Below are positions 12,221-17,880 of a stretch of 64,000 nt of DNA, one piece after another. Both the position numbers and the translations under genes were made by a program. The notes beneath the pieces were generated by a model, which worked only from the letters and a program-made list of their open reading frames with translations, was not told where the DNA came from and made no database searches. This stretch comes from Candidatus Obscuribacterales bacterium (lineage in GTDB: Bacteria; Cyanobacteriota; Vampirovibrionia; Obscuribacterales; Obscuribacteraceae): contig JAKFVU010000002.1 of the NCBI GenBank assembly GCA_021732025.1, positions 1 through 64,000 on the forward strand, given 5' to 3'. Positions within the stretch are counted from its first letter, which is position 1; every line of letters begins with the position of its first letter.

Positions 12221-12587
12221 CTACTTGAACTCAGACAACTGTGGCACCACTTTCTATTGCGAGCCTATGTAGGCCAGTTTGTAGAGCTAGAAAAATCACT
12301 CGCTTTTGTAGAAGAGCGAAAATGTTGAACTATGCTCAGAAAGCGGTGCTTCAAAATAGTCTACCTGTATGAAATTTGTAGCACCAGCTGACAAACTGTC
12401 GCAAGCACATGCTCGAAAGTTTCTATTGGTTGGAGCCAATTTTGGCGGCATAGGGAATAGGCAAACGGAAGCCATCTATATGCTGGCACTCCAAAGTCGT
12501 GTATTAAAAGTCAATTTAGCGAGTCTTAAGTGACACCTGATGCCACTGTGCAATATTCAGATTCTAATTGAACGACTGGAATGATTG
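12221..12587 (+). repeat. CTACTTGAACTCA element, left half only (LH0)
   Basis: Aligns over ~365 bp to the left parts of 13555-14136 and 15903-16486; homology stops at ATGATTG (12581-12587). Confidence 0.92.
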
Positions 12588-12710
12588 CTTTGGAAGTGGT
12601 GCTGGAGTAGGGACATCTATCGATTATGATGTCGGTTCTGGTGGCGCCGGTATTTTTTTCAATGGCGGTAACATAAGCATTAGAAGCAACACACTGATTC
12701 AATCTAACTA
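12588..12710 (+). pseudogene. 3' remnant of a Gly-rich protein gene
   Basis: Open frame FGSGAGVGTSIDYDVGSGGAGIFFNGGNISIRSNTLIQSN* with no start, followed directly by a terminator. Confidence 0.5.
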
Positions 12711-12723
12711 GAAATAAGGATCT

Positions 12724-12759
12724 GGATAGCAGCGTTTTTCAACGCTGCTATCCTTTTTT
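12724..12759 (+). terminator. Rho-independent terminator
   Basis: Perfect 11-bp stem GGATAGCAGCG / CGCTGCTATCC followed by TTTTTT. Confidence 0.85.
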
Positions 12760-12798
12760 CTGTATGATTGCTTTAGCTGTGTAGTTTGGAATCAGTCT

Positions 12799-13446
12799 AT
12801 GACAATTATTTGGTGTGCATTTGCGTCTATATTGCTTTCTATTTGCCTTTGTACATCAGCCAGGGCGGATAGCTACTTTCTTGCTGATGCAGATGGACTA
12901 GAACAATTATGGAAAGGTTTTGCGTTAAATGATATCGACATTTTCGATCTGACTGCTGACCTAAATCCGAAATCGGAAGAAGCCGATAAAAGCGATAGAA
13001 AAGTCATGTTGGAGAGTTTCAAGATTCTTCCTGTAGTAAGGATAGACAGGGGAGACACTGCTATTTATGTAAATCCTGACAACGTTTCTCTGCCCGACAG
13101 GCGCGGCATGACCATCCTCCGTCATCGTGACAGGATTCGAAGTCTAGTATTCGAATTGATAAAGTCTTGGCACGAATACCAACGACTGAAAATCTCAGAA
13201 TCTCAAGATATTGATGACATCCTGAAGACAAAAAATCTACAGCATAAACTTATGGTGAAATGTGGTGCAAACTACTTAGAAAAGGCCGAAAGCTGCATGT
13301 CGAGATATTCGCCAGAAGAGTTATCTGCAATTAAGACAGCTTTACCGGGCAGTTTTCCAGTAAAGCGTAAAACTGGTACGAGGTACCACCCCCAAGAGCA
13401 AATACTTTTAGAACCGAATACTTTTCAGGCATCACCTAATCCCTAG
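12799..13446 (+). CDS. Secreted hypothetical protein
   Basis: 215 aa with signal peptide (LLSICLCTSARA). Confidence 0.55.
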   Translation: MTIIWCAFASILLSICLCTSARADSYFLADADGLEQLWKGFALNDIDIFDLTADLNPKSEEADKSDRKVMLESFKILPVVRIDRGDTAIYVNPDNVSLPDRRGMTILRHRDRIRSLVFELIKSWHEYQRLKISESQDIDDILKTKNLQHKLMVKCGANYLEKAESCMSRYSPEELSAIKTALPGSFPVKRKTGTRYHPQEQILLEPNTFQASPNP

Positions 13447-13554
13447 AAAAACGTATTTCTGTAAAAATTTGCACCCGGAGGACCAGTCAGTTTTTTCTTC
13501 TATTGCTTAAACTTTACCGAAAATGATGATTTGGGGACCTTTTTTGTCACTATT

Positions 13555-14136
13555 CTACTTGAACTCAGACAACTGTGGCACCACTTTCTATTGCGAGCCT
13601 ATGTAGGCCAGTTTGTAGAGCTAGAAAAATCACTCGCTTTTGTAGAAGAGCGAAAATGTTGAACTATGCTCGGAAAGCGGTGGTTCAAAATAGTCTACTT
13701 GTAGAAAATTTGTAGCACCAGCTGACAAACTGTCGCAAGCACATGCTCGAAACTTTCTATTGGTTGGAGCCAATTTTGGCGGCATAGGGAATAGGCAAAC
13801 GGAAGCCATCTATATGCTGGCACTCCAAAGTCGTGTATGAAAAATCAATTTAGCGGGTCTGAAGTGACAGCTGTTGCCACTGTGCAATATTCAGATTCTA
13901 GTTGAACGACTGGCATGATTGATGGGAATAAGCACACTTAGCAAAATGCTGATTATGTAGACTAAACATGGTGCCTACAAGATGTCTACAAACGCGCTTG
14001 TAGAAAATGCCACTGAGATGGTGCCTGTTGCACTATTAAATAGTCATGCCACCGGCCATATAAGTTCGACGCCTACAAACATGCCTACACAGTCGCCGAA
14101 ACATTCTCTACACCGACCTTGTGTGAGTTCAAGTAC
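13555..14136 (+). mobile_element. Intact CTACTTGAACTCA element, copy A (MITE-like)
   Basis: Begins CTACTTGAACTCAGACAA, ends TTGTGTGAGTTCAAGTAC (inverted match); inverted subterminal TTGTAG/CTACAA boxes; no transposase ORF. Confidence 0.85.
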
Positions 14137-15902: not shown

Positions 15903-16486
15903 CTACTTGAACTCAGACAACTGTGGCACCACCTGCTGTTGCGAGCCTATGTAGGCAAGTTTGTGGAGCTACAAAAATCACTCGCTATTTTCGAAGAGCG
16001 AAAATGTTGAACTATGCCCCCAAAGCGATGGTTCAAAATAGTCTACTTGTAGGAAATTTGTAGCACCAGCTGACAAACTGTCGCAAACACATGCTCGAAA
16101 GTTTCTATTGGTTGGAGCCAATTTTGGCGGCATAGGGAATAGGCAAACGGAAGCCATCTATATGCTGGCACTCCAAAGTCGTGTATTAAAAGTCAATTTA
16201 GCGAGTCTTAAGTGGCACCTGATGCCACTGTGCAATATTCAGATTCTAATTGAACGAGTGACATGATTGATGCGAATTCGCTAACACTTTGCAAAATGCT
16301 GATTTTGTAGACTAAAAATGGTGCCTACAAGATTTCTACAAACGCGCTTGTAGAAAACGCCACTGAGATGGTGCCTGTTGCACTATTAAATAGTCATGTC
16401 ACCGGCTTTATAAATTCGACGCCTACAAACACGCCTACACAGTCGCCGAAACATTCTCTACACCTACCTTGTGTGAGTTCAAGTAC
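15903..16486 (+). mobile_element. Intact CTACTTGAACTCA element, copy B (MITE-like)
   Basis: Same ends and internal structure as copy A; truncates the RHS frame. Confidence 0.85.
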
Positions 16487-16489
16487 AAA

Positions 16490-16515
16490 GCCGCTCTGTC
16501 AATCGACAGAGCGGC
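16490..16515 (-). terminator. Terminator-like hairpin after the TPR gene
   Basis: 11-bp stem GCCGCTCTGTC / GACAGAGCGGC, loop AATC; sits between the TPR stop and the end of element B. Confidence 0.65.
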
Positions 16516-16524
16516 CTAGACTAA

Positions 16525-17517
16525 TTACTTCAGCGCCGCTAAGGCCTTCTTTTGTTGTTCTAAGTCAGCAATCGCAAATCTTACGAAAGCATCTGAAGCT
16601 TTTTTATTACCTGCTTTGCGCAGATTTTTAGCTACCACCAGATATGGCGACTCACCATTGAATGGTAAGTTTTGGATTTGCCCCCTAAAGCGCAAATCAC
16701 CCATCGCTTTGTCAGGTTGATTCTGCAAAGCGTAAATCGTTGCCCTTAGTGCCAGTATGGCAGGCTCTTCTACACTAAGATAGTTATCCGTCGAGCGCTT
16801 TGGCCGAAGGTTATACAGAAGATTTACAGCCTTTAAAGCTTTGTCAGGTGCATTCTGATCTCTCAAGATTATCGCCTCTACCAATTTGACCTGCGGTCTG
16901 AATGATAGCGATGGTGATAATTTTTTCGCTTGCTCTAAGCAACTAATTGCTTCCGTGGATTTCCCTTTTCGATGAAGTGCAAGTGCCTTTGTGGCAAGAT
17001 AGCCTGCAAACTCATCGGCAAATCCTGCACCTGGTACCATCAAAGCCGTTGTGTCTTTAATAACTTGATCGTTTCGACCCAATACAAGGTCGAGCCGCGA
17101 ACGAACCTCAAAGCAGTCAGAAGGCTGAAACTTATTCCGTTCTTTGGTTCTTACGGCTTGATCGTATAATTTTTGCGCTTCTAATGGCTGAGCAAGTTTT
17201 TCGGAAAGTTGTCCCCCAATGTACTCAGGCTCAGACTGAAGGGAAGTCGAAAGTTTGAAATCATCGAGAGCATTTTTGAACATACCAACCTTGCCATATG
17301 CCAAGCAACGACTATGGATAAGGTTTGGCATTGGCCTCCGACTTTCTGCCATAAGTTCATTAAGCCTACCGATTTGAGCCTCACATTCCGCCAAATCAAG
17401 TGGACTAAAACTGTCACTGTTATCATGCAGCCCTTTTGCATGAGCACAGGCTAAAAGGGATGATATGCCAATTACGAGCATACCTCCTCCAAACCAAACT
17501 CTCGATTTTACCGCCAT
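16525..17517 (-). CDS. TPR lipoprotein
   Basis: Internal start MAVKSRVWFGGGMLVIGISSLLACAHAKG (17517) gives a lipoprotein signal; TPR repeats follow. Confidence 0.7.
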   Translation of the reverse strand: MAVKSRVWFGGGMLVIGISSLLACAHAKGLHDNSDSFSPLDLAECEAQIGRLNELMAESRRPMPNLIHSRCLAYGKVGMFKNALDDFKLSTSLQSEPEYIGGQLSEKLAQPLEAQKLYDQAVRTKERNKFQPSDCFEVRSRLDLVLGRNDQVIKDTTALMVPGAGFADEFAGYLATKALALHRKGKSTEAISCLEQAKKLSPSLSFRPQVKLVEAIILRDQNAPDKALKAVNLLYNLRPKRSTDNYLSVEEPAILALRATIYALQNQPDKAMGDLRFRGQIQNLPFNGESPYLVVAKNLRKAGNKKASDAFVRFAIADLEQQKKALAALK

Positions 17518-17655
17518 CAAATACCTCAGCCATTGGCGCAGAATCCTAAGAACACTGGAGTATAAATCTCCCATTCAAAGGTTTGTGTAATCGACCTGAA
17601 AGTAGTCTACGGTTTATCTCGAACATAATCTTTAATCTTCTGCAAAACGTCAACT

Positions 17656-17880
17656 CATGATTGATGCGAATACGCAAACACTTTGCAAAATGCCGATTTT
17701 TTAGACTAAAAATGGTGCCTACAAGATGTCTACAAACGTGCTTGTAGAAAACGCCACCGAGATGGTACCTGTTGCACTATTAAATAGTCATGCCACCGGC
17801 TTTATAAGTTCGACGCCTACAAAGATGCCTACACAGTCGCCGAAACATTCTCTGCACCTACCTTGTGTGAGTTCAAGTAC
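17656..17880 (+). repeat. CTACTTGAACTCA element, right half only (RHc)
   Basis: Aligns to 13914-14136 and 16262-16486, starting at CATGATTG and ending TGAGTTCAAGTAC. Confidence 0.92.

What the first reader, a model, noticed from the sequence alone, without database searches (positions are those of the whole stretch)
12581..17663. Split element: left half and right half bracket a 5-kb cargo island, broken at the same ATGATTG
The left-only copy ends at ATGATTG (12581-12587) and the right-only copy begins at cATGATTG (17656-17663), the position where the halves join in intact copies. The 5 kb between them holds a gene remnant, a secreted ORF, an RHS toxin tip with candidate immunity gene, a TPR gene and two intact elements. 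Either one element was interrupted (ATGATTG resembling a 7-bp duplication), or ATGATTG is a recombination point that lets cargo accumulate.
Basis: partly seen in the sequence, partly recalled or inferred. Interest (0 to 1): 0.75.

Follow-up and report, generated by a model that had tools for sequence, protein, structure and literature searches.

The report
Split mobile element in cargo array
A 590-base repeat that brackets a toxin-gene fragment and other genes in a non-photosynthetic cyanobacterial relative turns out to be a stripped-down jumping element of the phage-integrase kind, and one copy of it has been pulled apart at seven bases with 5 kb of genes now sitting between its halves.

Summary
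LH0 (12219-12587) and RHc (17656-17885) add up to one ~590-bp element, overlap by exactly ATGATTG, and lie 5.07 kb apart with two intact copies (E1, E2) and gene modules between them. The element is a non-autonomous relative of a one-gene insertion element. In a related genome the same left end (~177 bp) and right end (~205 bp) flank a 458-aa tyrosine recombinase (Arm-DNA-bind_3 + Phage_integrase), in two 97%-identical copies. The window's copies lack the recombinase; an unrelated ~200-bp middle, where ATGATTG lies, takes its place. End models show the family in 18 of 50 genomes of this bacterial family. Copies lying <10 kb apart are in direct orientation at all seven loci found (p about 0.01), with cargo outside the element in the six other loci. 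Flanks do not match across the copies that could be checked, and LH0 is mosaic, so copies have recombined. ATGATTG is not a general breakpoint: other solitary ends break elsewhere. The inserted 5 kb has no terminal inverted repeats, so transposon insertion with a 7-bp target duplication is unsupported. Best reading: modules accreted at copies of a tyrosine-recombinase MITE, one copy being opened by a one-off event at a 7-bp microhomology.

The parts
12219..12587 (+). LH0: left part of the element (left end about 177 bp plus middle), ends at ATGATTG
   Evidence: 96%/94% identity to E1/E2; left-end model hit 12217-12394 E=4e-37
12581..12587 (+). ATGATTG at the left break
   Evidence: read directly; the sequence of E1/E2 stops matching here
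12588..13552 (+). cargo 1: 3' remnant of an unknown glycine-rich gene, terminator-like hairpin, 215-aa ORF (12799-13446), 5' remnant of another tyrosine recombinase gene on the minus strand (13466-13549)
   Evidence: 12699-13431 has homologues in two same-genus genomes
13553..14141 (+). E1: intact non-autonomous element
14142..15900 (-). cargo 2: RHS core fragment with tip (14987-15903, minus; HEVGH-type zinc protease motif read by eye) and adjacent possible immunity ORF (14294-14857, minus)
   Evidence: TIGR03696; RHS 5' part absent
15901..16491 (+). E2: intact non-autonomous element; its left end abuts the truncated RHS gene
16492..17655 (-). cargo 3: TPR protein gene (16525-17574, minus) with its upstream region
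   Evidence: Pfam TPR
17656..17885 (+). RHc: right part of the element, starts at cATGATTG and ends in the right terminal repeat
   Evidence: 92-94% identity to E1/E2; right-end model hit 17680-17885 E=1e-45
17657..17663 (+). ATGATTG at the right break
   Evidence: read directly
7081..7205 (+). older truncated right end, broken at a different position (right-end model position 46)
11218..11237 (+). left copy of a 20-bp direct repeat (18/20) flanking the larger region; right copy 17881-17900 begins exactly at the outer end of RHc

Best explanation
The repeated element is a non-autonomous (MITE-like) derivative of a small insertion element that encodes a single tyrosine recombinase. Both ends carry a terminal core (about TT[CG]GTACTNGAACTCACACAA) and clusters of TGTAG/CTACA motifs that I take to be arm-type binding sites for that recombinase (sites inferred; shared ends shown). 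Copies in direct orientation recombine with each other, by homologous recombination or by the recombinase in trans (inferred). Circles carrying one copy plus neighbouring genes would then insert at another copy, building same-direction arrays of element-cargo-element. LH0 and RHc are most likely the two halves of one third copy (E0), opened once at ATGATTG by recombination at a 7-bp microhomology with such a module, which left ATGATTG on both sides (inferred). The result looks like a 5.67-kb element with left end, cargo and right end, and could in principle still be moved as a unit if a recombinase were supplied.
For: Same left and right ends flank a 458-aa tyrosine recombinase in G065:C163, and an internally deleted copy in C164 at 97% identity; Pfam Phage_integrase 6e-20 and Arm-DNA-bind_3 1.7e-12. 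An 88%-identical recombinase with the same left end lies in G004, same genus. E2 holds 11 TGTAG/CTACA motifs against 1.3 expected, none in the middle 178-385. End models find paired ends 0.36-1.8 kb apart in other genomes with other middles. Neighbouring copies <10 kb apart are direct at 7 of 7 loci. Flanks are heterologous at window E1, E2 and G004:C21; in G062 the target gene lacks about 50 profile residues across the element. LH0 is E1-like at 1-185 and E2-like at 199-347, permutation p=0.002. The 3' half of LH0 and RHc are both closer to E2.
Against: No recombinase of this type was found in the window's own genome, which is a MAG about 84% complete. No empty site, circle or second example of the ATGATTG opening was found. 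LH0's left flank and RHc's right flank are not shown to have been adjacent. Mosaicism and heterologous flanks at E1/E2 could partly be short-read assembly chimeras across near-identical repeats, though the ATGATTG junctions lie in unique sequence and the G004 case comes from another assembly.
Confidence: 0.55

Rival explanations
1. The long form is ancestral: an element with left end, 5-kb cargo and right end carried ATGATTG at both cargo borders, and deletion between these 7-bp direct repeats produced the short 590-bp E, which then spread into the cargo (the usual origin of MITEs).
For: Deletion between 7-bp direct repeats gives exactly the E junction; non-autonomous copies with other middles exist in relatives.
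Against: The gene remnant next to LH0 is already cut at the border, with an in-frame stop 15 bp upstream inside E, so a fusion at ATGATTG is needed in this model too, plus later re-insertion of E twice into its own parent.
Confidence: 0.2
2. LH0 and RHc are remains of two unrelated copies that each lost the other half, and the shared ATGATTG is coincidence or a shared microhomology.
For: Solitary ends are common in the family; RHc has more private substitutions (7/225) than LH0 (4/367), though the difference is small.
Against: Exact complementarity within 7 bp is expected only about 2-3% of the time; matching orientation; matching affinity of both halves to E2.
Confidence: 0.2
3. A conventional transposon or integrating island inserted into E0 with a 7-bp target duplication or 7-bp core.
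For: ATGATTG directly repeated at both borders; remnant of another tyrosine recombinase gene inside (13466-13549).
Against: No inverted repeats at 12588 and 17655; left border lies inside a truncated gene; no complete recombinase or transposase inside.
Confidence: 0.1

Closest known systems
MITEs and other non-autonomous derivatives of insertion sequences
   Same: Short, no coding capacity, same ends as a recombinase-encoding partner, several copies, internal sequence replaced
   Different: The partner encodes a tyrosine recombinase, not a DDE transposase; ends are long and complex with arm-type motif clusters; target duplications were not shown
CIMEs (cis-mobilizable elements) and tandem accretion (PMC5704250)
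   Same: Recombinase-less elements that keep both att-like ends; arrays in one direction; cargo capture. LH0-cargo-RHc has exactly this shape
   Different: The basic unit is only 590 bp and is not tied to one target gene; cargo lies mostly outside the element, between right end and next left end; no conjugation genes seen
Integron cassette arrays / CALINs
   Same: Direct-oriented recombination sites alternating with mixed small genes, and a tyrosine recombinase
   Different: 590-bp sites with two ends rather than attC sites; the recombinase lies inside the element; its best NCBIfam hits are XerA/XerC far below cut-off and an integrase-domain model, not an integron integrase
Displaced rhs tip arrays (PMC2935791)
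   Same: RHS core fragment plus tip separated from a full rhs gene; recombination through circles proposed there
   Different: Here the fragment is cut exactly at the element's left end, and the only similar RHS core found in this genome is 66% identical, not identical
IS26-type translocatable units
   Same: One element copy plus adjacent DNA as a proposed mobile unit producing direct arrays (from my own knowledge)
   Different: Different enzyme class; no mechanism tested

Membership tests
Non-autonomous derivative of a tyrosine-recombinase insertion element | Shares both ends with an element encoding a recombinase | tested here: met
   G065:C163 LE E 3-177 and RE E 385-590 flank a 458-aa tyrosine recombinase
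Non-autonomous derivative of a tyrosine-recombinase insertion element | Encodes no recombinase itself | tested here: met
   No ORF of 80 aa or more lies within E1 and no Pfam match for the longest frame in the middle
Non-autonomous derivative of a tyrosine-recombinase insertion element | Mobilised in trans by the partner recombinase | not testable with these tools
   needs an excision assay
Non-autonomous derivative of a tyrosine-recombinase insertion element | Clean insertion with an intact empty site | tested here: inconclusive
   RHc's right flank is contiguous in G000:C11, but the other side does not match; G062's target gene is split with about 50 profile residues missing
DDE transposon / IS MITE | Partner element encodes a DDE transposase and makes fixed-length target duplications | tested here: not met
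   Partner encodes a tyrosine recombinase; no consistent target duplication at E1, E2, G065a/b, G002, G004, G005
CIME | Retains attL- and attR-like ends, lacks recombinase and transfer genes | tested here: met
   LH0 carries the left end and RHc the right end in matching orientation with no complete recombinase between them
CIME | Derived from a decayed ICE or IME integrated in one specific target | tested here: inconclusive
   partner is a one-gene element at varied sites; no conjugation genes seen
Integron / CALIN | attC sites and an IntI-type integrase | tested here: not met
   sites are 590 bp with two ends; recombinase matches XerA/XerC models far below cut-off; attC was not searched with a dedicated tool
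Displaced rhs tip | Tip carried with a piece of RHS core | tested here: met
   TIGR03696 in 14987-15850
Displaced rhs tip | Core identical to a resident rhs gene | tested here: not met
   the only similar RHS core found in this genome is 66% identical over 306 bp; incomplete MAG

The most novel reading that the evidence does not exclude
The element is the recombination site of an integron-like cassette system peculiar to this group: 0.4-0.7-kb two-ended sites, recognised by an Arm-DNA-bind_3 tyrosine recombinase that sits inside autonomous copies, collect and shuffle small modules (RHS tips, toxin-antitoxin pairs, small secreted proteins) in one direction.
Probability: 0.15. Interest if true: 0.85.

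Novelty: new variant of a known kind. Interest (0 to 1): 0.5.

Why it matters
One-gene tyrosine-recombinase insertion elements with MITE-like derivatives appear to be little described in bacteria; my limited literature searches found none. Same-direction arrays of them around RHS tips and toxin-antitoxin pairs would be a route by which competition and stability genes are collected outside integrons. That is testable with a two-plasmid excision assay.

Tried and rejected
A structured-RNA or tRNA identity for the conserved middle: ARAGORN and Rfam gave nothing. A hidden protein in the middle: the reading frame is broken in E1 and has no Pfam match. A high-copy MITE in the own genome: only the window carries it. 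Viral or plasmid origin: no exact match to a right-end pattern in IMG/VR, no recombinase patterns there, no plasmid match, phage relatives of the recombinase all below 60% identity. An empty site through flanking genes: the neighbours are not conserved. The gene remnant's identity: no clear homologue. Treating all solitary ends as biological: those in G004:C28, C5, C74 and G009:C27, C180 and one in G031:C175 run to contig ends, so their truncation is an assembly limit.

Full report
What is there. The window lies in contig C6 of a 4.6-Mb, 85-contig, about 84% complete MAG. Named records holding the same family of elements are Melainabacteria / non-photosynthetic cyanobacterial MAGs. Four copies of a repeat lie between 12219 and 17885, all on the + strand: LH0 (left part only), E1 and E2 (complete, about 590 bp, 93% identical) and RHc (right part only). 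LH0 stops and RHc starts at the same ATGATTG. A much older right end lies at 7081-7205 and breaks at a different place. No other copy was found in this genome.

What the element is. Searches of related genomes found elements with the same ends but different middles. The decisive case is G065:C163, where the same left end (E 3-177) and right end (E 385-590) flank a single 458-aa gene for a tyrosine recombinase with an arm-binding domain. The same genome holds a second copy, 97% identical, with part of the recombinase deleted. An 88%-identical recombinase with the same left end lies in a same-genus genome (G004:C74), and more distant or decayed ones in G010, G060 and G031. Both ends carry the terminal sequence GAACTCACACAA preceded by a variable stretch, and clusters of TGTAG/CTACA (11 in E2 against 1.3 expected, none in the middle). 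I read these as core and arm-type sites; that is inference. The window's E is therefore a non-autonomous, MITE-like derivative. The about 200-bp middle, nearly identical among the window copies, has no match elsewhere, no RNA family and no intact reading frame.

How common, and how copies are arranged. Models of the right and left ends hit 18 and 17 of 50 family genomes. Paired ends 0.36-0.72 kb apart occur in G002, G004, G005, G015, G028, G033, G062 and G065; 1.5-1.8 kb pairs contain the recombinase. Where two copies lie within 10 kb they are always in the same direction: the window, G062:C473, G065:C78, G004:C74, G005:C467, G031:C175 and G031:C36, seven loci of seven (about 0.8% under random orientation, one-sided). 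In the other six, cargo lies between the right end of one and the left end of the next. In G004:C74 that cargo looks like a HigBA-type pair; HipBA-type genes sit beside copies in G002 and G028 (read from sequence, not by domain search).

Junctions. In the window, E2's left end cuts an RHS gene and the missing 5' part is not on the other side; the same is seen in G004:C21 against the intact RHS gene of G005:C57. E1's left flank is the 5' remnant of another tyrosine recombinase gene and its right flank is sequence found downstream of an RHS gene in G005. In G062 the element sits in a recombinase gene that lacks about 50 profile residues. Copies therefore sit at junctions of unrelated DNA, as expected if copies recombine and remove what lay between them. 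LH0 is itself mosaic (E1-like at 1-185, E2-like at 199-347; permutation p = 0.002).

The split. The breaks of LH0 and RHc are complementary to within 7 bp, about a 2-3% coincidence for independent truncations. The 3' half of LH0 and the whole of RHc are both closer to E2 than to E1 (8:3 and 11:5 private differences), mild support for one original copy. The segment between has no inverted-repeat ends, and its left border lies in a gene already cut there. A transposon with a 7-bp target duplication is thus poorly supported; recombination at a 7-bp microhomology, for example between E0 and a circle carrying the modules, leaves the same footprint. Deletion between 7-bp repeats, making short E from the long form, leaves the same footprint too and cannot be excluded. 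ATGATTG is not shared with the other elements of the family and other ends break elsewhere, so it is not a general recombination point.

Outer boundary. A 20-bp direct repeat (18/20) lies at 11218-11237 and 17881-17900. The right copy starts exactly at RHc's outer end, and the site is contiguous in C11 of the same genome. This may mark a larger 6.6-kb island, but its left edge carries no element end, so I leave it open.

Limits. One MAG, no reads, no long-read check. The recombinase is absent from the recovered genome, so movement today would need help in trans. Literature searches gave CIME accretion (PMC5704250) and rhs tip displacement (PMC2935791) as the nearest described phenomena; I found no description of this element family.

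Noticed in passing
5212-7081: Another mobile unit: its first ~80 bp and last 58 bp recur in G004 and G005 around different cargo. The 58 bp is the 3' end of a nearly identical multi-copy 600-aa gene with a weak match (8.6e-5, below cut-off) to the TOTE-system primase domain. Window 5284-7034 is 96-97% identical to loci in two other species whose chromosomal genes are only about 72-79% identical.
   Followed up: partly
11218-11237 and 17881-17900: 18/20 direct repeat flanking the larger region; contiguous, unoccupied homologue at G000:C11:85231-85254.
   Followed up: partly
12581-12591 and 12764-12774: ATGATTGCTTT occurs at the LH0/cargo junction and again 183 bp downstream (15 of 18 bases alike).
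   Followed up: no
10230-10680: Decayed serine-recombinase-like gene (read from sequence).
   Followed up: no
L079 7060-8052 and 12006-12998 (G002:C198): A ~1-kb 3' piece of an oxoprolinase-like gene is duplicated (93%) around a HipBA-like pair and an E-family element.
   Followed up: no
L080 12500-12832 (G004:C21): The non-autonomous element here carries a second partial right end in its middle, suggesting recombination between ends.
   Followed up: no
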